A stretch of DNA of 32,464 bases, from positions 1 to 32,464 of the forward strand of contig JAJZWB010000030.1 in NCBI GenBank assembly GCA_021846845.1. The letters run 5' to 3'. Each line of letters starts with the position of its first letter. Positions within the stretch are counted from its first letter, which is position 1. A program made the translations under genes and the position numbers. Origin of the DNA: Actinomycetes bacterium (GTDB lineage: Bacteria; Actinomycetota; Thermoleophilia; Solirubrobacterales; Solirubrobacteraceae). The notes beneath the pieces were generated by a model. It was not told where the DNA came from, did not search any database, and saw nothing but the letters and a program-made list of their open reading frames with translations. Of this stretch, positions 1,495 through 21,319 are shown in pieces.

Positions 1495-1533
1495 AGTATA
1501 GCCGACGGCTCCGCCCGGGTCAAGTGCGTCTGG

Positions 1534-1573: not shown

Positions 1574-1589
1574 TGTACAAATTTGTCCA
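1574..1589. promoter_or_regulatory. Operator-like inverted repeat TGTACAAATTTGTCCA
   Basis: This 16-bp inverted repeat has one mismatch between arms and begins a few bases past the predicted transcription start of the glutamine synthetase operon. Its left half, TGTACAAA, matches the TTTGTACAAA core found at 10466-10475 and 15665-15674. A protein bound here would block early transcription, so a repressor is the simplest reading (inference). Confidence 0.5.
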
Positions 1590-1690
1590 GTCAGTTCGTG
1601 CTCGTGCCGGGCTGGGCGGAGATGAGGTTGAATCAGGCGTGAGGTCGTAGCGGGCGGGACGTTCGCCGCTTGCCGGTGCCCGGCCGCTGC

Positions 1691-1699
1691 GGTACAAGG
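1691..1699. promoter_or_regulatory. GGTACAAGG, degenerate copy of the TTGTACAA motif in the leader
   Basis: The same nine bases occur at 13563-13571 within the shared promoter region of the zinc-ribbon genes. Here they lie in the leader, about 40 nt before the glutamine synthetase start. The match could be chance, but the motif is rare in this GC-rich window. Confidence 0.3.
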
Positions 1700-1702
1700 T
1701 CA

Positions 1703-1733
1703 TTGCTGCTCCTGTGGGCAGCAAAGAGAGGAG
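1703..1733 (+). promoter_or_regulatory. Leader hairpin with possible anti-Shine-Dalgarno ahead of glnT
   Basis: TTGCTGC (1703-1709) and GCAGCAA (1718-1724) form a perfect 7-bp stem with an 8-nt loop. CTCCT (1709-1713), at the top of the left arm and loop, is complementary to the ribosome site AGGAG (1729-1733). The stem and the CTCCT/AGGAG pairing exclude each other, which would allow a translational switch. No known riboswitch class was recognised. Confidence 0.3.
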
Positions 1734-1738
1734 TGGAG

Positions 1739-3226
1739 ATGGCGACAGGCGACAAGACGCTGATCGAGGAGAGCGAGCACGTATCGCCCGCGACCCTGTT
1801 CGGGGGCAACGTGGACACGGTCCTCGCGACCCCGCGCATCAAGCCGGCCCCCGCGACGCTTGAGGAGGCGCGCAACGCCCCGGGCCGTCGTGAGAGGATC
1901 GAGGAGCTGACGCGGAAGATCGAGGCCGAGGGCATCCGGTACGTCTTCTTCCAGCAGGTGTCCGTGACCGGGCGGGTGATGGGCAAGGGCGTCGTGTCCT
2001 CGTTCTTCCCGCAGGTCGCCGAGAAGGGCTACCAGCTCGTCTACGGCGCGACGGCGAACCTGTTCACCGACCGCTACGGGAACTACATCGGCTTCGGCCC
2101 GGAGGAGTCCGAGCTCGCCGCGGTCGCCGACCTCGACACGTTCGCGGTGCTCCCGTGGGACCCGCGCGTCGCCCGCGTGTACTGCGACTGCTACGACACC
2201 GAGAGCGGCGAGCTGCTGGATGCCGATCCGCGCCAGAACCTGCGCCAGATCGCCCACGAGTTCGAGCAGGAGCTCGGCTACCAGTTCCTGATCGGCATCG
2301 AGCCGGAGATGATGTGGCTCAAGCGCCCCAAGAGCGGCGAGATGCCGGAGGGCGTGACCAAGCCGTACTGCTACCACATCCACCAGTTCGAGGAGCTGCG
2401 TCCGGTGCTGCTCGACGTGGTCGACTACGGGCAGAAGCTCGGCCTCGACATGAGCTACGGCGACCACGAGGACGCCCCGGGCCAGCTGGAGCTGAACTTC
2501 CGCTTCGACCGTCCGCTGCGCACGGCCGACAACATCACGACCTACCGCCAGATCTGCGCCGCGGTCGGGCGCAAGTACGACCTGCTGCCGTGCTTCATGC
2601 CCAAGCCGTTCACGGGCGTGGCGGCCAACGGCCACCACCACCACTTCACCCTGATCGACGATCAGGGCAAGAACGTGTTCCACGACCCGGACGGCCCCGC
2701 CCAGCTGTCGCAGTTCGCGCGCTCGTTCCTGGGCGGGATGCTGGACCACTTCCCGGCCCTGATGTGCGTCGGCAACCCCACCGTGAACTCCTACTGCCGC
2801 ATGTGGGACACCGGCTTCTGGGCCCCGATCTACAAGAACTGGGGCTGGCAGAACCGGACGACCACCGTCCGCGTCGCGTCCGGCGGCCGCTTCGAGTACC
2901 GCGGTGTCGACTCGTCCTGCAACCCGTACCTGACGATCGCGACCCTCCTGCGCGCGGGCCTCGACGGCGTCCGCCGCGGCGTCGACCCGGGTCCCCCGCA
3001 GCAGGGCAACACGTACGACCTGCTTCAGCAGGGCGCGCAGATCGAGAAGGTCCCGGACAGCCTGGGCGCCGCGCTGGAGGCGCTTGCCAAGGACGAGGTC
3101 GTCAAGAGCGCGATGCCGGGCCGGCTCTACAAGGTGTTCAACCACTACAAGCGCGACGAATGGGAGCGCTACCTCGCCGCGGTCACCGACTGGGAGCGCG
3201 ACGAGTACCTGGAGGTCCTGCCCTAG
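1739..3226 (+). CDS. glnT: Type III (GlnT-like) glutamine synthetase / gamma-glutamyl-amine ligase
   Basis: The 495-aa enzyme has glutamine synthetase landmarks: GIEPE (186-190), APGQLE (246-251) in the position of the family's SPGQ motif, NGHHHHF (297-303) and the C-terminal R-x-E-x-R segment followed by NPYL (395-398). The ATG at 1739 follows AGGAG. The in-frame upstream start at 1670 lies in the leader hairpin region and is less likely. The GlnT family includes enzymes that ligate glutamate to an amine, such as gamma-glutamylmethylamide synthetase, as well as ammonia-using enzymes. The three split glutamate-synthase genes just downstream favour an amine role through the MgsABC analogy, but sequence alone cannot choose the substrate. 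A roughly 50-residue N-terminal extension precedes the conserved region. Confidence 0.85.
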   Translation: MATGDKTLIEESEHVSPATLFGGNVDTVLATPRIKPAPATLEEARNAPGRRERIEELTRKIEAEGIRYVFFQQVSVTGRVMGKGVVSSFFPQVAEKGYQLVYGATANLFTDRYGNYIGFGPEESELAAVADLDTFAVLPWDPRVARVYCDCYDTESGELLDADPRQNLRQIAHEFEQELGYQFLIGIEPEMMWLKRPKSGEMPEGVTKPYCYHIHQFEELRPVLLDVVDYGQKLGLDMSYGDHEDAPGQLELNFRFDRPLRTADNITTYRQICAAVGRKYDLLPCFMPKPFTGVAANGHHHHFTLIDDQGKNVFHDPDGPAQLSQFARSFLGGMLDHFPALMCVGNPTVNSYCRMWDTGFWAPIYKNWGWQNRTTTVRVASGGRFEYRGVDSSCNPYLTIATLLRAGLDGVRRGVDPGPPQQGNTYDLLQQGAQIEKVPDSLGAALEALAKDEVVKSAMPGRLYKVFNHYKRDEWERYLAAVTDWERDEYLEVLP

Positions 3227-3259
3227 CGGCACCCCCGAAGGTTCACAGGAGACAACTAC

Positions 3260-4195
3260 ATGTGTGGAATAGCTGGGATCATCTACAGGGGCGGCGATGG
3301 AGGTCATCGCATCGGTCGTGACATGACCGCGATGCTTCAGTCCATGAAGCATCGCGGCCCGGACTCGACCGGCTATGCGCTCTATCGCGCGCCCACGCCG
3401 GAGCTGCTGCTCCGAGTAAAGCTGGGCGACTCCGGCGATGCCGAGTCCTTCCAGTTCGGCGAGGACATTCGCCGGCGTCGCCGTGAGTTGATGTCGGCCC
3501 TCACCGCCGCCGGTGCGAGCACCAAGGGCGTCGAGGACGTCAACGAGTACACGATCAGCGCCACGCTGGACTACCACGGCGATCTCAAGCACCTCGCGGA
3601 CCACATCGAGTCCGTGCACGGGCTGGAGGTGCTGTCCCTGGGCCACTCGCTCGAGATCGTCAAGGACCTCGGCGACGCGCGCAAGGTGTCGGGCGAGTAC
3701 CGGCTGGAGAACTACTTCGGCAGCCACGGCATCGGGCACGTGCGGATGGCGACCGAGTCCGACGTCGACATCGCCAATGCGCACCCCTACTGGGCGTACC
3801 CGTTCTCCGACGTGGCCGTCGTCCACAACGGGCAGCTGACCAACTACCACACCTGGAGGCGGCGCCTCGAGGCCCGCGGGCACCGCTTCGCCTCCGACTG
3901 CGACTCGGAGATCATCGCCGTGTACCTCGCCGACCGGATGGCCGGTGGGGAGTCGCTCGAGGACGCGATGCACCACAGCCTTGAGGATCTGGACGGCGTC
4001 TTCACCTACATCTGCGTGTCCGAGGACGCGCTGGGTGTCGCGAAGGACGAGCTGGCGGCCAAGCCGCTGGTCCTCTACGAGGGCGAGGACATGGTCGCGC
4101 TGGCCTCCGAGGAGATGGCGATCCGCGCGGTGATCGACCACGAGATCGAGACCTATGACCCCTACGAGAGCACGGTGATGGTATGGACACGGTGA
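3260..4195 (+). CDS. Class II glutamine amidotransferase (GltB1/MgsA/GlxB-like)
   Basis: Cys2 directly after the start Met is the N-terminal nucleophile of class II amidotransferases. Supporting motifs are HRGPDSTG (31-38), GHVRMATES (159-167), HNGQLTNY (189-196) and SDCDSE (212-217). It corresponds to the glutaminase domain of the large glutamate synthase subunit, here a separate 311-aa protein. An AGGAG sits eight bases before the ATG. It is the first of three genes that together rebuild GltB in parts, as in MgsABC (N-methylglutamate synthase) and rhizobial GlxBCD. It would hydrolyse glutamine or a gamma-glutamyl amide and pass the released ammonia or amine to the FMN subunit. An insert of roughly 110 residues between the second and third motifs is larger than in simple amidotransferases. 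Confidence 0.85.
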   Translation: MCGIAGIIYRGGDGGHRIGRDMTAMLQSMKHRGPDSTGYALYRAPTPELLLRVKLGDSGDAESFQFGEDIRRRRRELMSALTAAGASTKGVEDVNEYTISATLDYHGDLKHLADHIESVHGLEVLSLGHSLEIVKDLGDARKVSGEYRLENYFGSHGIGHVRMATESDVDIANAHPYWAYPFSDVAVVHNGQLTNYHTWRRRLEARGHRFASDCDSEIIAVYLADRMAGGESLEDAMHHSLEDLDGVFTYICVSEDALGVAKDELAAKPLVLYEGEDMVALASEEMAIRAVIDHEIETYDPYESTVMVWTR

Positions 4196-4983
4196 CGACA
4201 GGAGCGACACAGGAGGAGCCGCGCTTCGATCCTCGAGGGCTCGTCGAGCTCGACGCCCGGGTTCCCCGGGTCGCCGAGATCGACGGCGACCGGGCGGTCT
4301 TCGACGCGCGCGAGCTCACGACGCGGGGGATCAACCTTGAGCTGCGCCGCCTCCTCTACGAGGAGGGCGTGCGTGAGGTCACGGTCCAGAACCCGCGCGC
4401 GCGCCACTCGATCGGAGTCGGCCTGCTCACCCGGGCGAAGATCAACTTCGAGGGCAGCCTCGGATACTTCGCGATGGGCATGATGGACGGCCCTGAGGTT
4501 CACATCGCCGGTCGCGTCGGCTGGTCGGCCTGCGAGAACATGATGTCCGGCGTCACGGTCATCGAGTCCAACGCCGGCTCGCTCACGGGTGCCGCGATGC
4601 GCGGTGGCGACCTCGTCATCAAGGGCAAGGTCGGAGCCCGGACGGGCATCGATCAGAAGGGCGGCACCATCATCGTGATGGGCAGCGCCGGATCGATGAC
4701 CGGCTTCATGATGCAGCGCGGTCGCCAGATCATCTGCGGCGACGTCGGCCCGGGTCTGGGCGACTCGATGTACGACGGGGTCATCTACGTCGGCGGCAAG
4801 GTCAAGTCGCTCGGTATCGACTGCGTTCCGGGAGAGTGGACCGATGAAGACACCGAGCTGATCGAGCGCAAGTTCAGGATCTACGGACTCGGGACGCCGC
4901 CGCAGCTGCAGAAGTACGTGTGCGGCAAGAAGCTCTACAACTACGACACGCTCGAGCCCTCCGAGCGCAAGCTCGTCCTCTAG
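4183..4983 (+). CDS. GXGXG beta-helix subunit of glutamate synthase type (GltB3/MgsB/GlxC-like)
   Basis: The 266-aa protein carries the repeating G-x-G turns of the glutamate synthase C-terminal beta-helix (for example GSLGYFAMG, AGRVGWSACENMMSG, GGTIIVMGSAGSMTG, GDVGPGLGDSMYDG). In GltB this domain has a structural role next to the FMN barrel. The gene overlaps the end of the amidotransferase gene by 13 nt, so translation is probably coupled. It ends 11 nt before the FMN subunit start. A separate protein of this type beside separate glutaminase and FMN subunits is the arrangement of MgsABC, GlxBCD and archaeal-type split glutamate synthases. Confidence 0.85.
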   Translation: MDTVTTGATQEEPRFDPRGLVELDARVPRVAEIDGDRAVFDARELTTRGINLELRRLLYEEGVREVTVQNPRARHSIGVGLLTRAKINFEGSLGYFAMGMMDGPEVHIAGRVGWSACENMMSGVTVIESNAGSLTGAAMRGGDLVIKGKVGARTGIDQKGGTIIVMGSAGSMTGFMMQRGRQIICGDVGPGLGDSMYDGVIYVGGKVKSLGIDCVPGEWTDEDTELIERKFRIYGLGTPPQLQKYVCGKKLYNYDTLEPSERKLVL

Positions 4984-4994
4984 GAGTGCATGGA

Positions 4995-6437
4995 ATGGCT
5001 GACGAAACCTCACCGACTGCGCGCAACATCCTGGGCCACAGCCGGATCTTCACGCCGGAGGTCATGAATGACATCCACGTGAAGGCCGAGCTCGGCCGTT
5101 ACCGGATGCGCGGCTTCTCGATGTTCAAGAAGATCCCGCACTGGGACGAGCTGATGTTCATGCCCGGCACCCTGACGCGGTTCGTCATCGAGGGCTACCG
5201 AGAGAAGTGCGTGACCAAGACGGTTCTCGGATCGCGCTTCGCGTCCAAGCCGATCGAGCTTGACATCCCGATCTACATCACCGGCATGTCCTTCGGGGCC
5301 CTGTCGTTGGAGGCCAAGATGGCGCTCGCCAAGGGCGCGTCGATGGCCGGAACGGCGACGTGCTCCGGCGAGGGTGGGATGATCCCGCCCGAGCGCGACC
5401 TGTCCACAAAGTGGTACTACCAGGTGATCCAGAGCCGCTACGGCTTCAACCCGCACCACCTGATGCTCGCGGACGCGACCGAGTTCTTCATCGGTCAGGG
5501 CTGCAAGGTCGGGCTCGGCGGGCACCTGATGGGCCAGAAGGTGACCGAGCAGGTCGCCGAGATGCGCTCTCTGCCGGCCGGGATCGACCAGCGGTCACCC
5601 GCGCGTCACCCGGACTGGCTCGGCCCGGACGACCTCTCGCTGAAGATCCAGGAGGTCCGGGAGGCGACCAACTACGAGATCCCGGTCCAGCTCAAGCTGG
5701 GCGCCGCCCGCGTCTATGACGACGTGCGGATGGCGGCCAAGTGCGGTCCGGACATCATCTACCTCGACGGTGCCGAGGGTGGCACCGGCGCGGGCCCCCA
5801 CACCGCGACCGAGGAGACCGGCATCCCGCTGATGGCGGCGATCCCGGAGGCCCGGCGCGCGCTGGAGGACGTCGGCCTGGCCGACGAGATCGACCTCGTG
5901 GTCGCGGGCGGCATCCGCAACGGCGCCGACGTCGCCAAGTGCCTGGCCCTCGGGGCCACGGCGGTGGCGATCGGCCACTCGGCGATGATGGCGCTCAACT
6001 GCAATAAGGAGATCCCCGGCGTCACCGACTACGAGGGCACCGTTGGCGTTCCCGCGGGGCAGTGCTATCACTGCCACACGGGCCGCTGCCCGGTCGGCGT
6101 CGCGACGCAGGACACGGAGCTCCGCAAGCGCCTCGTCGTCGACGAGGCGGCGCACCGCGTGTACAACTTCCTGCACACGATGACGCTTGAGTGCCAGATG
6201 CTGGCCCGCGCCTGCGGCAAGACCAACGTGCACTCGCTGGAGCCGGAGGACCTGGCGGCCCTGACGGTCGAGGCCGCCGCGATGGCGAAGGTGCCGCTCG
6301 CCGGGACCAACTACATCCCCGGCGTCTCCGAGGAGCGCGCGCTGGCTCGGATCGAGCGTCTGCTCGAGAGCCACATCGCCAACCCGATCGACTACCTGGA
6401 CCCGGTGTCCACCGCGTCGGCCGGAGGTGAGCTGTGA
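4995..6437 (+). CDS. FMN/Fe-S glutamate synthase domain protein (GltB2/MgsC/GlxD-like)
   Basis: The 480-aa protein is the FMN-binding barrel of glutamate synthase. It shows TGMSFGALS (96-104), a DGAEGGTGAGP phosphate-binding loop (258-268) and AGGIRNG (304-310). A C-x2-C-x4-C cluster (C357, C360, C365; the last in GRCPVG) fits the Fe-S site. The ATG at 4995 follows GGAG at 4983-4986. It should reduce the 2-oxoglutarate imine formed with ammonia, giving glutamate, or with an amine, giving N-alkyl glutamate. No GltD-like NADPH subunit is in the window, so the electron donor is unknown; ferredoxin or an unlinked flavoprotein is possible. Confidence 0.87.
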   Translation: MADETSPTARNILGHSRIFTPEVMNDIHVKAELGRYRMRGFSMFKKIPHWDELMFMPGTLTRFVIEGYREKCVTKTVLGSRFASKPIELDIPIYITGMSFGALSLEAKMALAKGASMAGTATCSGEGGMIPPERDLSTKWYYQVIQSRYGFNPHHLMLADATEFFIGQGCKVGLGGHLMGQKVTEQVAEMRSLPAGIDQRSPARHPDWLGPDDLSLKIQEVREATNYEIPVQLKLGAARVYDDVRMAAKCGPDIIYLDGAEGGTGAGPHTATEETGIPLMAAIPEARRALEDVGLADEIDLVVAGGIRNGADVAKCLALGATAVAIGHSAMMALNCNKEIPGVTDYEGTVGVPAGQCYHCHTGRCPVGVATQDTELRKRLVVDEAAHRVYNFLHTMTLECQMLARACGKTNVHSLEPEDLAALTVEAAAMAKVPLAGTNYIPGVSEERALARIERLLESHIANPIDYLDPVSTASAGGEL

Positions 6438-6877
6438 GCACGCGCAGGCTGCCCGCAGAGCCGCAGAAGATCGTCTCGATCGACGCGGAGTACCTGTCAG
6501 GTCGGCGTTTCCCATACCAGGAGGACATGGGCCTGGTCGAGGACATCGACCTCATGGCCGCGACCCCGGGCGAGGACCTCAACTGGCTGGAGGACATCCA
6601 CCTCCTCATCGAGGACGGCGTGCCCGCGGTGTTCGACCGCTACTCCAACTCGTTCCTGAAGATCTACTTCGCCATCCCGGAGGGACGCGAGGACGAGATC
6701 GCCCGCAAGGTGCTGATCAAGCACCTGCAGTCCGGCAACTCCTACGGGATCACCCTCAAGGAGCGCCACTGCAAGTACCCGCAGCCCGAGCTCGGGCCGT
6801 GGGTGGAGGGCTCGCGCACCGTCGGGACCGACTACCACCGGTCGATCCTGGAGGGCTGGGAGCCGCCGGAGCACTAG
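6434..6877 (+). CDS. Uncharacterised 147-aa protein coupled to the glutamate synthase-like operon
   Basis: The GTG start overlaps the stop of the FMN subunit (GTGA) and is preceded by GGAGGTGA, so it is translationally coupled as the last gene of the operon core. No family was recognised. The protein is soluble and acidic in its N-terminal half (around EDMGLVEDIDLM). It has a conserved-looking central segment (DRYSNSFLKIYFAIPEG) and a C-terminal part rich in His, Tyr and Trp (near ERHCKY and GTDYH). It has a single Cys, and no signal peptide or membrane helix. Tight coupling points to a function with the split glutamate synthase or its substrate, such as a small subunit or binding protein. 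That is inference only. Confidence 0.75.
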   Translation: MSTRRLPAEPQKIVSIDAEYLSGRRFPYQEDMGLVEDIDLMAATPGEDLNWLEDIHLLIEDGVPAVFDRYSNSFLKIYFAIPEGREDEIARKVLIKHLQSGNSYGITLKERHCKYPQPELGPWVEGSRTVGTDYHRSILEGWEPPEH

Positions 6878-6888
6878 CCGTTCGGCAC

Positions 6889-6917
6889 GGGCGCCCGCCC
6901 TCTGCGGGCGGGCGCCC
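6889..6917 (+). terminator. Perfect 12-bp hairpin after the split glutamate synthase operon
   Basis: Arms 6889-6900 and 6906-6917 pair perfectly around a TCTGC loop, eleven bases after the 147-aa gene. There is no T-run. It probably ends or attenuates the operon, so the 250-aa gene 79 nt further on may be expressed at a lower level or from its own promoter. Confidence 0.65.
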
Positions 6918-6995
6918 TGCCCGTCGGGCCCGCGTTGCCGGGAGCGTGGCCGTCGTCTGGCCCGCCCGGCCGGGGCCCTGGAGGAGAGAGAGAGG

Positions 6996-7748
6996 ATGCA
7001 CACCTCAACGGAGCTTCGCAGCGATTCGTTCGAGATCCAGCGGGACGGCGCCGATGTCGCTCTCACGGACGTCCTTGAGGGCTTCACCGCCGCGGACCGG
7101 CTCGGCGTCGTCGTCCGGGAGCCCTGCGGCGCGGTCGGCGCCAGCGGCCTGATTCTCGCGGCCATCACGGCGTTCTACGACGCGCAGAGGCTGCTCTCGC
7201 CGGAGTTCTTCATCTATCCCGACTACTTCACCTTCCAGGTCGGGGCTCCGCTGGGAGACCACTCGATGCTTGACGTGTGGCCGTCCCACAAGGAGGTCGT
7301 CGTGCCCGACGACCCTGACGCGATCCTGGAGGCGGTCAACGACCGCGGGATCACCTGGCTCGTCGTCCCGGAGGGGACGCCGGGACCGGCTCCCACGCAG
7401 CGCGAGGCGCTGGCCAGCGCGCGCAGCCGGATCGCGGGCGCCCTGGCCTACTCGCCGCTCGGTCGCGTGCGCGAACCGGACGTGCGGATCGCGGGCAACG
7501 ACATCACCGAGGGCTACGTGCGCGCCGTGCTTGACCCTGAGGAGCTTCTCAGGACGCTCGGCGACCCGGCGCAGGACCCCTACGCCGCCGTGATCGCCAG
7601 GAGGGCCGGAGAGGCTCCGTCGGAGGCGCGCGCGCGCCTGCTCGCGTCGCGCGATCTGCTGCGGGAGGGCGGCAGGCCGGTGGAGACCTACCGGCGGCTG
7701 TCGCTCGAGCAGGCGCTCAAGCTTCTGACGCCCGGCGCGCGGGCCTAG
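6996..7748 (+). CDS. Uncharacterised 250-aa protein downstream of the operon hairpin
   Basis: The start is supported by an unusually long purine stretch (GGAGGAGAGAGAGAGG) directly before the ATG. I do not recognise the family. The N-terminal half has a VVREPCGAVGASG segment and an aromatic-rich stretch (FFIYPDYFTF), then LDVWPSHKEVVVP and a short alpha/beta-looking region. The C-terminal third is Arg/Glu/Ala-rich and looks helical (GEAPSEARARLLASRDLL). There is no signal peptide or membrane helix. It shares direction with the glutamate synthase-like operon, but a strong hairpin separates them. Role unknown; it may belong to the same pathway by position. Confidence 0.7.
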   Translation: MHTSTELRSDSFEIQRDGADVALTDVLEGFTAADRLGVVVREPCGAVGASGLILAAITAFYDAQRLLSPEFFIYPDYFTFQVGAPLGDHSMLDVWPSHKEVVVPDDPDAILEAVNDRGITWLVVPEGTPGPAPTQREALASARSRIAGALAYSPLGRVREPDVRIAGNDITEGYVRAVLDPEELLRTLGDPAQDPYAAVIARRAGEAPSEARARLLASRDLLREGGRPVETYRRLSLEQALKLLTPGARA

Positions 7749-8102: not shown

Positions 8103-8131
8103 GGGGGCCGGGCCTCGCTGGCCCGGCCCCC
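8103..8131 (-). terminator. Perfect 12-bp hairpin terminator of permease 1
   Basis: Arms 8103-8114 and 8120-8131 pair perfectly around TCGCT, fifteen bases beyond the permease stop on the - strand. Being symmetric, it could also stop transcription arriving from the 250-aa gene on the + strand. Confidence 0.65.
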
Positions 8132-8146
8132 TCCGCGCGCGAGCGA

Positions 8147-9694
8147 TCAGCCGATCGCGAGCGGCATGGAGCTGTCGGACAGCCCCTCCACCCGAACGCC
8201 CATCGCCTCGAAGGCTCTCGCCTCGTCGGCGTCGGGCACCTGCGGGGCCGGCTCACGCCACTGGATCGACTGGCGGTCCTGGACGAGCTTGCGGAAGAAG
8301 AACGCCAGCACGCCGATGAAGACCACGGCGAGCCCGATCAGCGTCTTGCCCAGGCCGTAGCCGTACTTGTTGGCCTCGACCCAGCCGCCCATCACGAAGA
8401 ACGCGAAGTTGGCGGCCAGCACGAACCCGGCGACCGGGAGCAGCACCCCCGACAGCCGGTACGGACGCGGCCAGTTCGCGCGGTCCTTGCGCAGCAGGAA
8501 GAACCCTGACTGGGCGAAGATGTGCGCGACGAAGTAGCCGAGGTTCCCGGCGGCGATGATCGGCAGCGCCCCGTGGAAGAACGTCAGCAGCCACAGGTTC
8601 AGCACCATGTCGAGCGTCATCGCCCGACCCGGCACGTGGCGTGAGCTGAGCACCCCGAGCTGCTTGATCGTCATCCCGTCCTTGGAGACTCCATATAGGG
8701 CTCGGGAGCCGTCCATCGTGGCGGAGTTCATCGACAGGATCAGGCCCGCGACCAGGAAGATGATCATGACGTCGGCGCCCCCGGTGCCGAGGATCCGGTC
8801 GAACGCCGTCACGTAGAACGCGATCGCGGTCGGGTCCTTGGCGATCGTGGCCCCGCCGAGCACGCCGCCCGTGCCGAGCGGCAGCAGCGCGTAGACGAGG
8901 ATCGAGAACGCGGCGGCGGTGATCAGGCCGGTCGGCAGGTCGTGCCGTGGGTTGCGGTACTCCGGCGAGAAGGTCGCGACGGCCTCGAAGCCGTACGAGG
9001 ACCAGCCCATGAAGTACATCCAGGTGATCCCGAGCAGGATGGCGTCGCCGCCGGAGCTGGGGAAGTTGAACGCCAGGTTGGCGCCGTGGAAGTCACCGGA
9101 GAAGTAGCCGCCGAACATCAGCACCAGCAGCGGGATGATCAGCAGCCCGCCGGTGACGTAGCCGACCCAGAGGCCGATCTTCATGCCCAGCACGTTGAAC
9201 GCCCAGACGAACAGGATCACGCCGATGCCGATCACGACCGGCAGATTGAGCAGGAAGTGGGCGCCGCTTGCCTGCCAGGTGCTGCTGGGGAACCACTTCG
9301 CCTGGATCAGCGTCCCGACGACCAGCCCGTTGATCGAGAGGACGCTTGACCACGCGAACCAGTATCCGAACGTGGAGATCGGCCCGACCAGCGCGAAGTA
9401 CTTGCGCCACGCCTCGTGGGCGAACAGCGCGATCCCGCCCGGCTTGGTCGGGAACATCAGCGCCAGCTCGGCGTAGACCAGGTTCTGGAAGAACCCGAGC
9501 AGGACCGAGGCGATCCACAGGACCATCGCGCCGGCGGTGCCGAGCGCGACGACCGAGCCGCCGAGCGCCGCGATCAGGAAGCCCGGGTTCGCCAGGCAGA
9601 CGACGAACCCGTCCCACCACCGCATGCTCTGCAGCAGCTCCCGGTCCTCGACCTCAACGTGTGCGGTCGGGGCCTTCCCGTTGCCGTCATCCAT
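8147..9694 (-). CDS. APC-superfamily amino acid/amine permease 1
   Basis: A 515-aa, strongly hydrophobic protein with about twelve membrane stretches. It has the APC-type first helix (WWDGFVVCLANPGFL), the following GG-x-ALG region and a GWSSYGFEAVATFSPEY loop like that of amino acid permeases. The ATG at 9694 (start MDDGNGKAP) follows AAAGGTGG. The frame stays open further upstream only by GC bias. It is nearly collinear, and very similar by eye, to permease 2 (11189-12736), which has exactly the same length. It follows the zinc-ribbon protein gene in the same direction and probably shares its transcript. The substrate is unknown; the neighbouring amine/glutamate genes suggest an amine or amino acid. 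Confidence 0.87.
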   Translation of the reverse strand: MDDGNGKAPTAHVEVEDRELLQSMRWWDGFVVCLANPGFLIAALGGSVVALGTAGAMVLWIASVLLGFFQNLVYAELALMFPTKPGGIALFAHEAWRKYFALVGPISTFGYWFAWSSVLSINGLVVGTLIQAKWFPSSTWQASGAHFLLNLPVVIGIGVILFVWAFNVLGMKIGLWVGYVTGGLLIIPLLVLMFGGYFSGDFHGANLAFNFPSSGGDAILLGITWMYFMGWSSYGFEAVATFSPEYRNPRHDLPTGLITAAAFSILVYALLPLGTGGVLGGATIAKDPTAIAFYVTAFDRILGTGGADVMIIFLVAGLILSMNSATMDGSRALYGVSKDGMTIKQLGVLSSRHVPGRAMTLDMVLNLWLLTFFHGALPIIAAGNLGYFVAHIFAQSGFFLLRKDRANWPRPYRLSGVLLPVAGFVLAANFAFFVMGGWVEANKYGYGLGKTLIGLAVVFIGVLAFFFRKLVQDRQSIQWREPAPQVPDADEARAFEAMGVRVEGLSDSSMPLAIG

Positions 9695-9795
9695 ACGTAC
9701 ACCACCTTTCGAGTCTTGGTCTGAACTTCGAAGCGGCGGCCGTACGGCTGCGGCCGCGTGCTTCAGCCATCTGTTGTCCACCTGCCCGGGTCCGG

Positions 9796-10239
9796 TCAGG
9801 GCTCTCCACGCAGGGTCCAGCTTCGGCGCCTCGCGATCGCCGCCGCGTAGCGCCGGCGGTGGATCCCCCTGATGAGGCCCCACGTCAGCAGCGCGATCGG
9901 CAGCAGCAGCACGACGCCGGCGGTGTAGCCGCTGAGCGTGAAGAAGGCCGCGCCCGCGACCACGAGCAGCCCCAGGGCCACGGGCAGCGCCCGGAACCTG
10001 AGCTGCAGGCGGCGGATCTCGTTGTACTCGGCCCGGGGGATCCGACCCGTGTCCCAGGTTCGCCCGCAGGTCTCGCAGGTCCAGCTGTCGCCGTGGCGGA
10101 CCCTCTCCCGGTGCCCGCACGAGCAGGTCACCGTGAGCCGGGGCCCGTGAAGGGCGACGCCCGGAGCTTCGTGGCCGATCCGCTTGCGCGGCTCTGGATC
10201 GGCGCCGTCGCGCAGGCGGCGGCGGTATCTAGATGCCAT
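9796..10239 (-). CDS. Zinc-ribbon, two-helix membrane protein 1
   Basis: The 147-aa protein has an N-terminal basic region and a zinc-ribbon-like set of Cys pairs (TCSCG and, about 16 residues on, CETCG). A WDTGRIPRAEYN segment follows, then two hydrophobic helices (from LPVALGLLVV and GVVLLLPIAL) and a basic tail (ending WTLRGEP). The ATG at 10239 aligns exactly with the GTG start of its copy at 13342, and both give 147 aa, so it is preferred over the longer frame from 10308. No ribosome site is obvious. It lies 101 nt upstream of permease 1. I know no function; a membrane accessory or sensor for the permease is a guess from synteny, which is repeated in the duplicated unit. Confidence 0.75.
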   Translation of the reverse strand: MASRYRRRLRDGADPEPRKRIGHEAPGVALHGPRLTVTCSCGHRERVRHGDSWTCETCGRTWDTGRIPRAEYNEIRRLQLRFRALPVALGLLVVAGAAFFTLSGYTAGVVLLLPIALLTWGLIRGIHRRRYAAAIARRRSWTLRGEP

Positions 10240-10456
10240 GGCGGCCGCGATGGTCGATGGGGTCCGGCTGGATCGTGATTCTGCCGTCAGCACCCGCGGG
10301 ACGTTCACGACCGCCGGCCGGGGCGAGACGCCCGGTCGCCTTCGTCGCAGAATCCGCTGTTGCGCAAGTTCGCTCGGTCTGTGAGCTCATTGCCGCTCCC
10401 GTCTCCCTTAAAGCACGGTATGCCACGCGCCGGAAGGCCCCTGCGCGTCGCAACCT

Positions 10457-10485
10457 TTGAACGATTTTGTACAAAGCTATAGCAT
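10457..10485 (+). promoter_or_regulatory. Promoter with TTTGTACAAA operator in the spacer, toward zinc-ribbon gene 2
   Basis: TTGAAC (10457-10462), a 17-nt spacer and TAGCAT (10480-10485) read toward the gene at 10608. The spacer holds the perfect palindrome TTTGTACAAA at 10466-10475, three bases after the -35 and four before the -10. This is exactly the layout of the permease 3 promoter. Leftward transcription toward zinc-ribbon gene 1 may also start near here (TATAGC on the - strand). Confidence 0.6.
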
Positions 10486-10607
10486 CGCGGAGACGGCTGC
10501 GTTGCCGGCCAGGGCCGCCGGCGCCGTCCACGGCGAAACCGGCCCAAACCGATACAATTCATGGGCTCGTCAAACGCATGCGCACCGGCTCGGGAGGGGC
10601 TTGGCTG

Positions 10608-10994
10608 ATGGAGGGAGACTCGGTTCCCAGGAACCTCAGGCACGGACCGCCGATCACGCTAACCTGCGACTGCGGCGAGCGCCGGCAGCTGCGCTACGGC
10701 GAGCGGTGGACCTGCGAGAGCTGCGGCAAGACCTGGAACACGAACCGGATCCCGGCCGAGCAGTACGGCGCGATCCGCGCAACCCAGATCCGCTACCGGC
10801 GGATCCCCGCCGCGCTGAGCGTGCTGGCGCTGGGCTGCATCGTCGCGTTCGTGATCGCCGGCAAGGCGTTCGGCGGCCTCATCATGGTCGCGCTCCTCGC
10901 GACGACATGGACGATGTTCTTCCGCCCGTTCTACCGGCGCCGCTATCGCCGGGCGCTCGCGGACCTGCCGACCTGGAAGATCAAACCCGAGTAG
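10608..10994 (+). CDS. Zinc-ribbon, two-helix membrane protein 2
   Basis: A 128-aa relative of the two other zinc-ribbon proteins here, with CDCGER, then WTCESCGKTWNTNRIPAEQY, then two hydrophobic helices (LSVLALGCIVAFVIAG and GGLIMVALLATTW) and an Arg-rich tail. The ATG at 10608 has GGGAGGGG upstream and begins with a compact N-terminus; the longer open frame from 10467 would translate the promoter. It is transcribed away from zinc-ribbon gene 1 and has no permease of its own downstream. It is more diverged from copies 1 and 3 than those are from each other, so it is probably an older paralogue. Function unknown. Confidence 0.78.
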   Translation: MEGDSVPRNLRHGPPITLTCDCGERRQLRYGERWTCESCGKTWNTNRIPAEQYGAIRATQIRYRRIPAALSVLALGCIVAFVIAGKAFGGLIMVALLATTWTMFFRPFYRRRYRRALADLPTWKIKPE

Positions 10995-11107
10995 GCCGTT
11001 CTCGGAGCCCGTGCCGCGAGGCTCGGCCGGGTGGGGCGCTCTCGGAGGCCGCGCCGGACGGGCGGGGCGCGCCGGGAGGCTCGGGCGGCGGGGGTCGCCG
11101 GTCGGGC

Positions 11108-11142
11108 GGGGCTGCGGGCCCGTCCGTCGAGCCCGCAGCCCC
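11108..11142. terminator. Bidirectional hairpin between convergent zinc-ribbon 2 and permease 2
   Basis: Arms 11108-11119 and 11131-11142 form a perfect 12-bp stem with an 11-nt loop. It sits between the ends of two convergent genes (10994 and 11189), so it can serve both strands. Confidence 0.6.
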
Positions 11143-11188
11143 GGCGCCGGTTCATCTGGAGGTCAGCGCGCAGCCCCCGGCAGCTCCG

Positions 11189-12736
11189 TCACCTCGCGGC
11201 CAGCGGGGCCGACCGCTGCACCTGACCGTCGAGTGCCACGCCCATCGACTCGAACGCTCGCGTGGACTCGGCGTCCGGCATCGTCGGCGTCGACTCACGC
11301 CAGTGGATCGAGGTGTGCTCCTGGACGACCCGGCGGAACACGAACGCCAGCACGCCGATGCAGACCACCGCGAGCCCGATCAGCGTCTTGCTCAGGCCGT
11401 AGCCGTACCTGTTGGCCTCGACCCAGCCGCCCATGACCAGGAAGGCGATGTTGGCGGCGAGCACGAACCCGGCGACCGGGAGCAGCGCCCCCGACAGCCG
11501 GTAGGGACGCGGCCAGCTCGCGCGGTCCTTGCGAAGCAGGAAGAAGCCGGACTGGGCGAAGATGTGCGCCAGGAAGTAGCCGAGGTTGCCGGCGGCGATG
11601 ATCGGCAGCGCGCCGTGGAAGAACGTCAGCAGCCAGATGTTGAGCACCATGTCCAGCGTCATCGCTCGCGCGGGCACGTGGCGGTCGCTGAGCACCCCGA
11701 ACTGCTTGATCGTCATCCCGTCCCTGGAGACTCCGTAGAGCGCTCGCGAGCCGTCCATCGTCGCGGTGTTCATGGACAGGATCAGCCCGGCGACCATGAA
11801 GGCGATCATCACGTCGGCGCCGGCGCTGCCGAGGATCCGGTCAAACGCGCCGACGTAGAAGGCGATCGCGGTCGGATCGCTTGAGATCGCCTTGGTGCCG
11901 AGCACGCCGCCGGTGCCCAGCGGCAGCAGCGAGTAGACGAGGATCGAGAACACCGCCGCCGTGATCAGGCCGGTCGGCAGGTCGCGCTTGGGCTCGTGGT
12001 ACTCGGGCGCGAACGTCGCGACGGCCTCGAACCCGTACGAGGACCAGCCCATGAAGTACATCCAGGTGATCGCCAGCAGCGCCGCGTCGCCGGACGATGC
12101 CGGGAAGCTGAACGTCATGCTGGAGCTGTGCCAGTCGCCGGTGAAGTAGCCGCCGAACATCAGCACCAGCAGCGGGATGATCAGCAGCCCGCCGGTGACG
12201 TAGCCGACCCAGAGGCCGATCCGCATGCCCAGGACGTTGAACAGCCAGACGAACAGGATCACGCCGATGCCGATGAAGATCGGCAGGTTCAGCAGGAAGT
12301 GGGCGCCGCTGGCCGACCAGGTGGTGCTCGCGAACCACTTCGCCTGGACCAGCGTCCCGACGACGAGGCCGTTGACGGCCAGCACGCTTGACCAGGCGAA
12401 CCAGTAGCCGAAGGTCGCGATCGGCCCGATGAGCGAGAAGTACTTGCGCCACGCCTCGTGGGCGAACAGGGCGATGCCGCCCGGCTTGGTGGGGAACATC
12501 AGCGCCAGCTCGGCGTAGACCAGGTTCTGGAAGAAGCCGAACAGGACCGAGGCGGTCCAGAGGACCGTCGCGCCCGCGGTCCCCAGCGCGAGCACCGAGC
12601 CGCCGAGCGCGGCGATCAGGAAGCCCGGGTTCGCCAGGCAGACGACGAACCCGTCCCACCACCGCATGCTCTGCAGCAGCTCCCGGTCCTCCACCTCGAC
12701 CTGTGCCGTCGGGACTTTGCCGGTGCCGTCATCCAT
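11189..12736 (-). CDS. APC-superfamily amino acid/amine permease 2 (duplicate of permease 1)
   Basis: This 515-aa protein has the same length, helix pattern and motifs as permease 1, including WWDGFVVCLANPGFL and GWSSYGFEAVATF. Differences cluster in loops and at the C-terminus (ending APLAAR rather than MPLAIG). The ATG at 12736 corresponds to the start of permease 1, and the upstream AAAGGCGGTGG matches permease 1's AAAGGTGGTG. Zinc-ribbon gene 3 lies upstream in the same direction, repeating the order of the other unit. The intergenic gap carries two 25-bp direct repeats that the other copy lacks. Paralogous transporters beside one catabolic module may differ in affinity or substrate (inference). 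Confidence 0.87.
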   Translation of the reverse strand: MDDGTGKVPTAQVEVEDRELLQSMRWWDGFVVCLANPGFLIAALGGSVLALGTAGATVLWTASVLFGFFQNLVYAELALMFPTKPGGIALFAHEAWRKYFSLIGPIATFGYWFAWSSVLAVNGLVVGTLVQAKWFASTTWSASGAHFLLNLPIFIGIGVILFVWLFNVLGMRIGLWVGYVTGGLLIIPLLVLMFGGYFTGDWHSSSMTFSFPASSGDAALLAITWMYFMGWSSYGFEAVATFAPEYHEPKRDLPTGLITAAVFSILVYSLLPLGTGGVLGTKAISSDPTAIAFYVGAFDRILGSAGADVMIAFMVAGLILSMNTATMDGSRALYGVSRDGMTIKQFGVLSDRHVPARAMTLDMVLNIWLLTFFHGALPIIAAGNLGYFLAHIFAQSGFFLLRKDRASWPRPYRLSGALLPVAGFVLAANIAFLVMGGWVEANRYGYGLSKTLIGLAVVCIGVLAFVFRRVVQEHTSIHWRESTPTMPDAESTRAFESMGVALDGQVQRSAPLAAR

Positions 12737-12781
12737 CACATCCACCGCCTTTCGGGTCTGCGCTTGCACCATGTCGCCGCT

Positions 12782-12844
12782 CGCACCCGCGCGTGCCGGT
12801 GCGACCTCCGGATCGCGCCCGCACCCGCAGGTGCCGGTGCGACC
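12782..12844. repeat. Two 25-bp direct repeats between zinc-ribbon 3 and permease 2
   Basis: Copies at 12782-12806 and 12820-12844 differ at two of 25 positions and are 38 bp apart. Each contains CGCACC...GGTGCG, able to form a small hairpin. They lie in the intercistronic gap of a presumed two-gene transcript, so they could affect mRNA stability or permease expression. The equivalent gap of the sister unit lacks them. Confidence 0.6.
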
Positions 12845-12898
12845 GCCGCCTCGTCACGGGCCCCGGCAGGGTGCCTGGGGCGTCCGTCGTGCGCCGTC

Positions 12899-13342
12899 TC
12901 ACGGCTCTCCCCGCAGGGTCCAGCTCCGCCGCCTCGCGATCGCCGCCTGGTAGCGGCGGCGATGCACCCCCCGCAGCAGGGCCCAGGTCAGCAGCGCGAT
13001 CGGAAGCAGGAGGACCACGCCCTGCAGGTATCCGCTCAGCGTGAAGAAGGCGGCTCCGGCGACGACAAGCAGGCCGAGCGCCACCGGCAGCGCCCTGAAG
13101 CGCAGCTGGATCCAGCGGATCTGGTTGTACTCGTCGCGCGGGATCCGGCTCGTGTCCCACCTCCGGCCGCAGCCCTCGCACACCCTGATCTCGCCGTAGC
13201 GCAGCTTGTGCCGGCGTCCGCAGGAGCAGGTGAGCGTCAGCGGCGGCCCGTGGAGCGCGGTCCCCGGAGCCTCGTGGCCGACCCGCTCCCGCCGCGGCGG
13301 CGCGGTGCCGTCACGGAGACGGCGACGGCGCCTAGCGGCCAC
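12899..13342 (-). CDS. Zinc-ribbon, two-helix membrane protein 3 (duplicate of protein 1)
   Basis: The GTG at 13342 gives a 147-aa protein that aligns end to end with protein 1. The N-terminus is basic (MAARRRRRLRDG), followed by the shared RxGHEAPG segment, TCSCGRR, CEGCGRRWDTSRIPRDEYN, the identical hydrophobic stretch LPVALGLLVVAGAAFFTLSG and the identical tail WTLRGEP. An open frame extends upstream to 13477 but has no better start. It lies 162 nt upstream of permease 2. Retention of both members of the unit after duplication suggests the zinc-ribbon protein and permease act together. The biochemical role is unknown. Confidence 0.77.
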   Translation of the reverse strand: MAARRRRRLRDGTAPPRRERVGHEAPGTALHGPPLTLTCSCGRRHKLRYGEIRVCEGCGRRWDTSRIPRDEYNQIRWIQLRFRALPVALGLLVVAGAAFFTLSGYLQGVVLLLPIALLTWALLRGVHRRRYQAAIARRRSWTLRGEP

Positions 13343-13551
13343 CCGGCCCCCGATCCGCGCCGGGTGCGGCGTGACGTCGCTGACCCGAACCGATCCGCCG
13401 ACGGCGGACGGCCTCGCCGCATGACGACACCGCTCGTGCCGTCGACCATACGGAAGATGCTGAGTCGGTCCCAGCATCCGGGCGCATCTCTGTCCTCGCG
13501 TTCCCTCTCGTGTCGATCGCGTCCGCGCCGCAACACGCTCGGGGAGCGATC

Positions 13552-13601
13552 TTGAGCAGATTGGTACAAGGAGGCTAGAGCATCGCGTGGACGCTTGTCA
13601 A
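13552..13601. promoter_or_regulatory. Promoter region of zinc-ribbon 3/permease 2 with TTGGTACAAG site
   Basis: Leftward, TTGACA (reverse complement of 13596-13601), an 18-nt spacer and TAGCCT (reverse complement of 13572-13577) form a promoter toward zinc-ribbon 3. TTGGTACAAG (13561-13570) lies just past its -10. The + strand also keeps TTGAGC (13552-13557), three bases, the operator, five bases and TAGAGC, which mirrors the promoter at 10457-10485. That suggests the duplication carried a divergent promoter whose rightward gene is absent here. Confidence 0.5.
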
Positions 13602-13639
13602 ACCCCGCGTCCGCGGCGTCCGGCGCCCTCAGACGCCGA

Positions 13640-13669
13640 GGGGCGCGGCCGGCGAACCGGCCGCGCCCC
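13640..13669 (-). terminator. Perfect 13-bp hairpin terminator of the permease 3-usp transcript
   Basis: Arms 13640-13652 and 13657-13669 pair perfectly around CGAA, fifteen bases past the leftward universal stress protein stop. No T-run is present. Confidence 0.65.
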
Positions 13670-13684
13670 CTCCGACGATCCGTC

Positions 13685-14107
13685 TCAGTGGACGATCAGC
13701 ACATCGCAGCCGGCGCCGTGGGACACGGCGTCCGAGACGCTCTGCCCCAGCAGCCGCTGGATCGCCGACAGCTCGCGGCCGCCGATCACGATCATGTCGG
13801 CCGACCGCTCGCGGGCCGCCGCCACGATCCCCTCGGCCTCGTGCCCGAGCGCCTCGATGTACTCGGCGGATAGGCCCTCGCCGTCGAGGTACGCCCGCGC
13901 CTGGCCCAGCTCCGCGCGATGCTCGGCGGCGGTCTCGACCGGGTCCGTCGCGATCGAGCGCGGCGCCGCGGAGGTGACCACCGGGGCCACGCTGGTCACG
14001 ACCAGCTTGGACCCGAGCGCCCTGGCGAGCGTCGCGGCTCGCTCCAGCGCGCGATGCGAGACCTCGCTCTCGTCGTAGGCGACGAGGATCGTCCCGATCG
14101 AGCTCAT
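13685..14107 (-). CDS. Universal stress protein (UspA family)
   Basis: A 140-aa single Usp domain. It has the N-terminal beta strand and Asp (TILVAYDES), a central helix pair and a C-terminal segment IGGRELSAIQRLLGQSVSDAV that occupies the place of the nucleotide-binding G-x2-G-x9-G-S/T loop in an altered form. Its ATG overlaps the permease 3 stop by four bases (ATGA), so the two are translationally coupled. Usp partners encoded with transporters are common and often bind ATP or AMP to tune transport. The altered glycine loop leaves ATP binding uncertain. Confidence 0.88.
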   Translation of the reverse strand: MSSIGTILVAYDESEVSHRALERAATLARALGSKLVVTSVAPVVTSAAPRSIATDPVETAAEHRAELGQARAYLDGEGLSAEYIEALGHEAEGIVAAARERSADMIVIGGRELSAIQRLLGQSVSDAVSHGAGCDVLIVH

Positions 14108-15579
14108 GCGACCGCCACCGGCTCGGCACCGAACAGCTCCGCGCGCTCGGCCTCCGTCGGCATGTCCGGGACCTCCTCACGCAGGTGCACCTTCTCGCCG
14201 TCCTGGACGACGCGGCGGAACACGAACAGCAGCAGCGAGCCGAGCAGCACCCCGACGCCGATCCAGAAGTCGGTCCAGGTGCCGTACCCGTTGAGGTGCG
14301 GCGCCAGCGCCCCGATCACCAGGAAGGCGGCGTTGAGCACGGCCAGGGTCGCGGCGATCGGCACCCACGCCGGCCCGACCTTGATCGGTCTCGGCCAGTT
14401 GGGACGGTCGCGGCGCAGCAGCAGGAACCCTGACAGCGCGAACACGTGCGCCATCACGTAGCCGATGTTGCTCAGGTACAGGATCGCGAGGTTGCTCTTG
14501 ATGAACAGCACCAGGCAGATGTTCACGAACAGGTCCATCGACATCGCGCGGGCGGGGACGTGGAACCTGTTGAGCGTGCCGAACTGCTTGATCGTCATGC
14601 CGGCGCGCGAGATGCCGTACAGCGCCCGTCCCGCGTCCGAGGTCGACGAGGTCATCGACAGCAGCAGGCTCGCGATGATGCACAGCGTGAAGAACGCCGC
14701 GGCGCCGTGGCCCACGAGCGTCGACATCGCCTGCGTGTAGAACTGGCCCTCAGCGGTCGCCGCCGGCACCGCGCCGGTGACGCCGCCCAGGCCGAGCGGC
14801 AGCAGCACGCAGATCAGCAGCATGAACGTAGCCGCCGAGCGCAGCGCCTTGTGCGTGTCGTCGATCGTCCTGTACTCGGGAGCGAAGGTCGCGCACGCCT
14901 CGGTCCCGTACGCGGACCACGCGAGGATGAACATGTACACGAGCGCCAGCTTGATGCCGCTCCATGGGCCCGTGAAGGTCGCGTGGATGTTGCTCGAGTG
15001 CCAGTCGCCCGTGATGTAGGGCGCGATCACGAACAGCGCCAGCGGCACCATCAGCAGCGCCGCGCACGCGTAGGTGAACCACACGGCCGGGCGCATCCCG
15101 AAGATGTTGAACGCCCACACGAAGATGATGCAGCCGATCGCGATGAACGAGGACAGCGTCAGCGTGTTGCCGGCGAACGCGATCGACAGGGTGGAGTGTG
15201 GCCACCACTGCGAGGTCGCGAGGTCGCCGATCACCTTGCCGAAGATCGACAGCACGACCGACCAGCCGATCCAGTAGCCGAACGCCGACAGCGGACCGAC
15301 CAGCGTCGTGTACTTGCGCCAGCCCTCGTGGGCGTAGAGCGCGATCCCGCCGCTGCGGTTTCCGAACATCGTCGCCGGCTCGGAGTAGATCCACGCCTGG
15401 AGCATGCCGATCGCTGCCGACGCGCCCCAGAGGATCATCGAGCCGGTCACTCCGAAGAGCCCCAGCGTGTAGCCCAGGCTTCCAAGCAGAAAGCCCGGGT
15501 TGCAGAGAGCGATGATGAAACCGTCCCACCATCGCAAAGTCTTGAGGAGCTGGACCTCCTCGACGGTTGCACTGGCCAA
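14104..15579 (-). CDS. APC-superfamily amino acid/amine permease 3
   Basis: A 491-aa polytopic protein related to permeases 1 and 2 (LRWWDGFIIALCNPGFLLG near the N-terminus, AWSAYGTEACATFAPEY mid-protein) but clearly more distant. The TTG at 15579 is chosen because AGGAGG lies eight bases upstream and it begins just before the conserved region. The ATG at 15621 lies upstream of that ribosome site. It is coupled by a 4-nt overlap to the downstream Usp gene. Its promoter contains the same TTTGTACAAA operator as zinc-ribbon gene 2, so it probably belongs to the same regulon. The transported substrate is not predictable from sequence. Confidence 0.87.
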   Translation of the reverse strand: MASATVEEVQLLKTLRWWDGFIIALCNPGFLLGSLGYTLGLFGVTGSMILWGASAAIGMLQAWIYSEPATMFGNRSGGIALYAHEGWRKYTTLVGPLSAFGYWIGWSVVLSIFGKVIGDLATSQWWPHSTLSIAFAGNTLTLSSFIAIGCIIFVWAFNIFGMRPAVWFTYACAALLMVPLALFVIAPYITGDWHSSNIHATFTGPWSGIKLALVYMFILAWSAYGTEACATFAPEYRTIDDTHKALRSAATFMLLICVLLPLGLGGVTGAVPAATAEGQFYTQAMSTLVGHGAAAFFTLCIIASLLLSMTSSTSDAGRALYGISRAGMTIKQFGTLNRFHVPARAMSMDLFVNICLVLFIKSNLAILYLSNIGYVMAHVFALSGFLLLRRDRPNWPRPIKVGPAWVPIAATLAVLNAAFLVIGALAPHLNGYGTWTDFWIGVGVLLGSLLLFVFRRVVQDGEKVHLREEVPDMPTEAERAELFGAEPVAVA

Positions 15580-15654
15580 ACCTCGTCCCTCCTGATCTCG
15601 GCGGCCGGCCGGGTGGCCCAATGCCTCCCGGCCTTGTGGCGCTTGTTGCGCGCG

Positions 15655-15683
15655 GTTATACCAGTTTGTACAAAGCCGGTCAA
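15655..15683 (-). promoter_or_regulatory. Promoter of permease 3 with TTTGTACAAA operator in the spacer
   Basis: On the - strand, TTGACC (complement of 15678-15683), a 17-nt spacer and TATAAC (complement of 15655-15660) form a near-consensus promoter. The spacer is GGC + TTTGTACAAA (15665-15674) + CTGG. A protein on this palindrome would sit between -35 and -10, which classically means repression, or MerR-like remodelling. The predicted leader to the TTG start is about 70 nt. Confidence 0.7.
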
Positions 15684-21260: not shown

Positions 21261-21319
21261 GCCTCGGGCCGGGTCGGCCTGGTCGGGCTGCGCTGCGCCT
21301 CGGCGCCGTCCGCACCCGC

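What the first reader, a model, noticed from the sequence alone, without database searches (positions are those of the whole stretch)
1574..15674. A local regulon marked by TTTGTACAAA with fixed promoter geometry
Perfect TTTGTACAAA palindromes lie in two promoters with identical layout (-35 TTGAMC, 3 nt, operator, 4 nt, -10): 10457-10485 (+) and 15655-15683 (-). A related inverted repeat lies at the start of the glutamine synthetase transcript (1574-1589). A degenerate form, GGTACAAGG, lies at 13563-13571 and 1691-1699. Such AT-rich motifs should be rare at this GC content and all sit at promoters or leaders of the amine/permease genes. They imply one dedicated regulator, probably a repressor, encoded outside the window.
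Basis: partly seen in the sequence, partly recalled or inferred. Interest (0 to 1): 0.7.

Follow-up and report, generated by a model that had tools for sequence, protein, structure and literature searches.

The report
Methylamine regulon with 16-base operator
The repeated DNA motif is real, but it is one end of a 16-base repressor-type binding site that marks the methylamine and trimethylamine use genes of a soil actinobacterium, and a GntR-type regulator encoded elsewhere in the genome is its likely reader: a tidy new local regulon of a familiar kind.

Summary
Both perfect TTTGTACAAA palindromes exist and are the only two in the 3.68-Mb genome, which is a Solirubrobacterales draft judging by its relatives. 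The promoter footprint is conserved in eight sibling genomes. The unit was mis-framed. The shared operator is the 16-bp inverted repeat TGTACNAATTNGTACA. The 1691 box is not supported. Geometry is not fixed: the operator overlaps the -10 at the permease promoter and lies just after the -10 at the glutamine-synthetase-like promoter. The genes form a methylamine cassette. The same operator precedes trimethylamine dehydrogenase, a TMAO-demethylase-like GcvT, FTHFS and an acyl-CoA-dehydrogenase operon, in this genome or in siblings. The regulator is very probably a GntR-UTRA protein. It is present in exactly the nine permease-bearing genomes of the genus, sits beside TMADH in this genome, and leads the GS operon in a distant Thermoleophilaceae genome. 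That genome is the only distant one carrying the operator, and it lacks the rival IclR. IclR instead tracks a different motif at the DAO promoter. Position implies repression. Binding and inducer are untested.

The parts
1574..1589 (+). Operator O1: TGTACAAATTTGTCCA, 16-bp inverted repeat just downstream of the -10 (TGCTATAA, ~1554-1561) of the GS operon
   Evidence: one mismatch to TGTACNAATTNGTACA; conserved at the same place in sibling GS leaders
15657..15672 (-). Operator O2: TGTACAAACTGGTATA read on the minus strand, overlapping the -10 of the permC promoter
   Evidence: 29.2 bits; present in all nine permC-bearing genus genomes
15655..15683 (-). permC promoter TTGACC-N17-TATAAC (-35, operator, extended -10 TGGTATAA)
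   Evidence: footprint TTGACCNNCTTTGTACAAACTGGTATAA in 9 genomes; -35 and most of the -10 invariant
10458..10473 (-). Operator O3: TGTACAAAATCGTTCA (minus), next to TGCTATAGC (-10), in the divergent region between znA-permA (-) and znC (+)
   Evidence: 2 mismatches to consensus, 20.6 bits
13553..13568 (-). Degenerate operator O4: TGTACCAATCTGCTCA (minus), upstream of znB-permB; its surroundings resemble the O3 region
   Evidence: 3 mismatches, 14.3 bits
1739..3226 (+). Glutamine-synthetase-like gene, probable glutamate--methylamine ligase (GMAS-like)
   Evidence: PF00120; 243 bits to glutamate--methylamine ligase 9qur, second to an archaeal GS 8ool
3260..6437 (+). Three glutamate-synthase-like subunits (GATase, GXGXG, Glu_synthase): N-methylglutamate-synthase-like
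   Evidence: Pfam; synteny with GS in siblings
6434..6877 (+). orf6434, conserved with the operon, no family
8147..9693 (-). permA, APC permease, TMAO-permease-like
   Evidence: NF053774 186 bits, below its cut-off
9796..10308 (-). znA, small zinc-ribbon-like protein with two hydrophobic stretches
   Evidence: sequence; paralog of znC
10608..10994 (+). znC, paralog of znA; in siblings it directly follows orf6434 in the GS operon
11189..12772 (-). permB, APC permease, TMAO-permease-like
12899..13477 (-). znB, paralog of znA and znC
13685..14107 (-). Universal stress protein downstream of permC
   Evidence: PF00582
14104..15579 (-). permC, APC permease, TMAO-permease-like; TTG start at 15579
   Evidence: NF053774 183 bits; orthologs in 8 siblings
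141..1433 (-). DAO/sarcosine-oxidase-like FAD gene, divergent from GS; carries a different motif (TTGCG-N5-CGCAA type), not the TGTAC operator
   Evidence: promoter alignment

Best explanation
TTTGTACAAA is the outer end of a 16-bp inverted-repeat operator, consensus TGTACNAATTNGTACA. It marks a methylamine/trimethylamine catabolic regulon in Solirubrobacterales. A GntR-family repressor with a UTRA ligand-binding domain (this genome, contig 203, positions 3329-4270 on the minus strand) binds it as a dimer. It blocks RNA polymerase by covering the -10 (permC) or the DNA just after the -10 (GS operon, TMADH and others). A methylated amine or a catabolite of one would bind the UTRA domain and release it, inducing uptake (permC, permA, permB), TMA demethylation (TMADH), the glutamylmethylamide and N-methylglutamate steps, and one-carbon handling (GcvT-like, FTHFS) together. 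Shown by sequence: the operator, its conservation, its positions and its target genes. Strongly supported by co-occurrence and linkage: the identity of the regulator. Inferred: dimer binding, repression and inducer.
For: Footprints: nine permC promoters in the genus and eight GS leaders carry the site. A palindrome-centre scan puts the best symmetry at the 16-mer centre for the permC, GS and other groups; the 10-mer centre stands out only in permC, where it is second best. Same operator elsewhere in this genome: C203:2460, 7 nt after TGGTATAAA, before a TMADH gene 90% identical to its sibling; C104:144 before a TMAO-demethylase-like GcvT; C31:35006 before an APC permease (15.7 bits). TMADH identity: 903 bits to 1djn. 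Regulator: GntR-UTRA domains; strong orthologs in exactly the 9 of 28 genus genomes that have permC (Fisher p 1.4e-7); beside TMADH here; leading the GS operon with a site in the gap in distant genome G060. Of 22 distant permease carriers only G060 has a strong GntR ortholog, and only it has the operator near the permease. Operator model R2 hits 9 of 10 GntR-positive and 0 of 40 GntR-negative genomes.
Against: The operator does not match the published HutC/UTRA consensus NyGTMTAKACNy, where GT and AC are 4 nt apart (PMC4494728); here the distance is 10, although the protein's HTH is canonical. Within the genus GntR cannot be separated from the pathway, so co-occurrence there is also co-occurrence with the substrate genes. 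R2 was trained on the genus sites, so its in-genus hits are by construction, and its E-values are weak (0.19 to 1.9 per genome). The separation from IclR rests mainly on one distant draft genome. No expression or binding data exist.
Confidence: 0.76

Rival explanations
1. The operator is read by the IclR-family regulator encoded next to the GntR gene, not by GntR.
For: IclR is adjacent to GntR and close to DAO or TMADH in the genus and is present in all nine operator-bearing genus genomes. The operator does not fit the HutC consensus.
Against: IclR orthologs occur without the operator in G011, G002 and many distant permease carriers (13 of 22 pass the threshold), and none passes it in G060, which has the operator. 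In G011, which keeps IclR and DAO but not GntR, the DAO promoter keeps a separate TTGCG-N5-CGCAA-type motif.
Confidence: 0.12
2. The functional unit is the 10-bp TTTGTACAAA palindrome within a fixed -35/-10 frame, as first read.
For: It is conserved with at most 2 mismatches in nine permC promoters; it is a secondary symmetry centre there.
Against: It is not conserved in the GS leaders or at the other targets, where only the 16-mer symmetry appears. In some permC promoters the 10-mer symmetry is broken (TTTGTACCAA, TTTATACAAA).
Confidence: 0.07
3. The sites are activator-binding sites or only promoter elements, with no repressor.
For: The right half of the permC operator coincides with the -10 (GGTATAA), so some conservation there is promoter conservation.
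Against: GS, TMADH and other operators lie downstream of the -10 and are conserved independently of promoter elements; activators rarely bind there.
Confidence: 0.06
4. Chance AT-rich motifs at promoters.
For: Promoters are AT-richer than genes in this genome.
Against: Genome-wide rarity, orthologous footprints and recurrence at functionally linked genes on other contigs.
Confidence: 0.01

Closest known systems
TmoR (GntR family) and TmaR (AraC family) of Ruegeria pomeroyi (PMC13390433)
   Same: Transcriptional control of TMA catabolism; TmoR is a GntR-family repressor of tmm, and TmaR binds the tmm, tdm, dmm, gmaS-mgs and mgd promoters.
   Different: Alphaproteobacteria with the Tmm/Tdm oxidation route; the master regulator is an AraC-type activator; TmoR acts only on tmm. 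Here a single operator covers TMADH, GMAS/NMGS-like, transport and one-carbon genes. Sequence relationship of this GntR to TmoR was not tested.
HutC/UTRA subfamily of GntR regulators (YvoA/NagR, DasR, PhnF, HutC)
   Same: GntR winged helix plus UTRA domain; YvoA matches over nearly the full length; repressor-type positions at catabolic promoters.
   Different: Operator TGTACNAATTNGTACA has GT and AC 10 nt apart instead of the usual 4 (PMC4494728).
Trimethylamine dehydrogenase plus N-methylglutamate pathway
   Same: TMADH full-length match; GMAS-like GS and split glutamate-synthase subunits in one operon.
   Different: Found in uncultured Solirubrobacterales with APC-type TMAO-permease-like transporters and small zinc-ribbon-like proteins.

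Membership tests
GntR family, HutC/UTRA subfamily (the proposed regulator) | N-terminal GntR winged helix | tested here: met
   PF00392 3.7e-20; invariant SRGTLR recognition segment in ten orthologs
GntR family, HutC/UTRA subfamily (the proposed regulator) | C-terminal UTRA domain | tested here: met
   PF07702 42.8 bits against cut-off 23.8; 48.8 bits in a sibling
GntR family, HutC/UTRA subfamily (the proposed regulator) | Operator of the form NyGTMTAKACNy | tested here: not met
   TGTACNAATTNGTACA has GT-N10-AC (against PMC4494728); published exceptions exist (FarR, NagQ, SdhR)
GntR family, HutC/UTRA subfamily (the proposed regulator) | Direct binding to the operator and ligand-dependent release | not testable with these tools
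   needs EMSA or footprinting
Methylamine/TMA catabolic regulon | Operator at genes for uptake, demethylation and C1 transfer | tested here: met
   permC, GS operon, TMADH, GcvT-like, FTHFS and others
N-methylglutamate pathway | GMAS with split glutamate-synthase-like NMGS subunits | tested here: met
   (sequence level only; the GS also resembles ordinary glutamine synthetases)
N-methylglutamate pathway | N-methylglutamate dehydrogenase mgdABCD | not tested
   not searched genome-wide
TMAO permease (NF053774) | Score above the curated cut-off | tested here: not met
   181-187 bits against cut-off 690: related, not a member

The most novel reading that the evidence does not exclude
A UTRA-type GntR repressor with a canonical HTH recognises a 16-bp operator of unusual half-site spacing (GT-N10-AC) and acts as the single master repressor of a complete TMA-to-C1 regulon in Solirubrobacterales, with a second, separate IclR circuit at the adjacent DAO gene.
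Probability: 0.5. Interest if true: 0.5.

Novelty: new member of a known kind. Interest (0 to 1): 0.4.

Why it matters
It gives a testable operator and regulator for methylated-amine use in a soil actinobacterial lineage met here only as metagenome assemblies, and ties together TMADH, the GMAS/N-methylglutamate operon and several uncharacterised transporters as one induced pathway. No paper linking GntR to this pathway in Actinomycetota was found in the library searched. If the operator spacing is confirmed it adds an exception to the HutC-type binding rule.

Tried and rejected
(1) First genus-wide pattern ACCNNNTTGNACAANNNGGT: my spacing was wrong; it returned mostly chance hits, much like the reversed control, and is not used. 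(3) A MerR-type reading (palindrome in a long spacer with ACC/GGT arms) was considered and dropped: the spacer is 17 nt and the ACC/GGT arms are promoter elements. (4) GGTACAAGG at 1691: no conservation. (5) Rfam: no RNA family in the window, so no riboswitch in the leaders by that test. (6) Literature search for the motif returned unrelated, mostly eukaryotic papers. (7) The permC paralogs in L067, L068 and L069 lack the operator upstream. (8) C134:19844 (before a chemotaxis-type receptor) and hits inside ORFs at C61, C82, C109 and C163 were treated as chance.

Full report
What was checked. TTTGTACAAA lies at 10466-10475 and 15665-15674 and nowhere else in the 3.68-Mb draft genome of which the window is contig 75. 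The 8-mer TTGTACAA is equally restricted, against 8 hits for the reversed control. A first-order Markov model of the window predicts 0.009 copies of the 10-mer and 0.83 of the 8-mer genome-wide.

The gene setting. The + strand operon from 1739 encodes a GS-like ligase close to both an archaeal glutamine synthetase (259 bits) and a glutamate--methylamine ligase (243 bits), followed by GATase, GXGXG and Glu_synthase subunits, which is the layout of an N-methylglutamate synthase. Divergent from it is a sarcosine-oxidase-like DAO gene. Three APC permeases on the minus strand all have the TMAO permease model as best hit, but far below its cut-off. Three small zinc-ribbon-like paralogs (znA, znB, znC) accompany them. 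In siblings znC follows orf6434 directly in the GS operon, and permC lies beside a universal stress protein. Here the extra permA/znA and permB/znB genes lie between orf6434 and the permC block. Records of the relatives are mostly named Solirubrobacterales.

Phylogenetic footprints. Orthologs of permC exist in nine genomes of the genus including this one. All nine carry TTGACCNNCTTTGTACAAACTGGTATAA or a close variant upstream of permC; a tenth sequence, a second copy in one of these genomes, does not. The GS upstream regions of eight genomes share a -10 (TGGTATAA or TGCTATAA) followed within about 20 nt by TGTACCAATTTGTACA or a close variant.

The operator re-framed. In the same register the permC site reads TGTACAAACTGGTATA, so its right half is the -10 itself. 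A palindrome-centre scan over the aligned sites puts the best centre at the middle of the 16-mer in the permC, GS and remaining groups; the centre of TTTGTACAAA stands out only in permC, second best. The window therefore has operators at 1574 (28.6 bits), 15657 (29.2), 10458 (20.6) and a degenerate one at 13553 (14.3). The 10458 and 13553 sites have matching surroundings. On the minus strand both follow a TGCTATAG- or TGCTCTAG-type -10, as at GS, and point to znA-permA and znB-permB. A permA-like gene in a distant genome has its operator in a similar place. The palindromic GCTATAGC at 10476-10483 leaves open that znC (+) is served as well.

Extent of the regulon. Allowing three mismatches, this genome has 16 places, against 10 for the reversed control, so that list is only mildly enriched overall. 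With two mismatches there are four: three in the window and C104:144, about 30 nt before a GcvT-like gene whose best model is the folate domain of TMAO demethylase. C203:2460 stands 7 nt after TGGTATAAA before a TMADH gene (90% identical to a sibling protein that scores 903 bits to the solved TMADH). C31:35006 precedes another APC permease. In siblings the site also precedes an acyl-CoA-dehydrogenase/GcvT/flavin-reductase operon, FTHFS and possibly the GntR gene itself.

Which regulator. Two regulator genes sit together in siblings: a GntR-UTRA protein and an IclR protein. In this genome they are on contig 203 next to TMADH. GntR orthologs (63% or more to the query) occur in exactly the nine permC genomes of 28 held (Fisher p 1.4e-7); one further genome, G002, has only fragments. 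IclR occurs in those nine plus two others. Outside the genus, 22 genomes with a permC-like gene were tested. Only G060 (Thermoleophilaceae) has a strong GntR ortholog (52%), and only it has the operator near the permease. There GntR is the gene directly before the GS operon, with TGGACCAATTCGTGCA in the gap next to a GGTATAGT -10. G060 has no IclR ortholog at the threshold, whereas 13 of the 22 do. Model R2, built from permC and GS sites of the genus, hits 9 of 10 GntR-positive genomes and none of 40 GntR-negative ones; the hits in the genus are by construction, while the zeros and the G060 hit are informative. The DAO promoter carries another motif, a tandem of TTGCG-N5-CGCAA-like repeats, retained in G011, which has IclR and DAO but no GntR or permC. 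The simplest reading is GntR for the TGTAC operator and IclR for the DAO motif.

Mechanism. Operators cover the -10 or lie just downstream of it, the usual position for a repressor that blocks polymerase. A UTRA domain binds small molecules, so an amine or a catabolite is the expected inducer (inference from the family). No binding or expression data exist.

Comparison with the known. In Ruegeria an AraC-type activator (TmaR) and a GntR repressor (TmoR) control TMA use (PMC13390433). The present system shares the pathway logic but differs in lineage, first enzyme and regulator scope. The regulator meets the domain tests of the HutC/UTRA subfamily but its proposed operator does not meet that subfamily's usual consensus (PMC4494728). 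This is the main reason to keep the regulator assignment below certainty.

Verdict. A real, conserved, pathway-specific regulon; first reading right in outline and wrong in motif frame, geometry and one site. New member of a known kind.

Noticed in passing
window 1460-1500 (minus-strand DAO promoter): A second conserved motif, tandem TTGCG-N5-CGCAA-like repeats about 20 nt apart after the -10 of the DAO gene, seen in ten genomes including G011, which lacks GntR; probably the IclR operator.
   Followed up: partly
window 20915-28764: Hopanoid biosynthesis cluster: squalene-hopene cyclase, HpnC-, HpnD- and HpnE-like genes and HpnH.
   Followed up: no
window 9796-10308, 10608-10994, 12899-13477: Three paralogs of a small zinc-ribbon-like protein with two hydrophobic stretches and no Pfam family, tied to the methylamine operon and permeases across the genus.
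   Followed up: partly
window 16570-17424: Peptidase_C26 (gamma-glutamyl hydrolase-like) gene conserved near the cluster; could act on gamma-glutamylated amines.
   Followed up: no
window 19881-21260: PLP-dependent decarboxylase, best model L-2,4-diaminobutyrate decarboxylase, far below its cut-off.
   Followed up: no
L188 829-1599 (this genome, contig 12): A second GntR paralog (about 40% identity) in this genome, with a stop codon reported inside its match; role unknown.
   Followed up: no
window 28769-31652: Two response-regulator genes and an adjacent histidine-kinase-like ORF, judged from the translations only.
   Followed up: no
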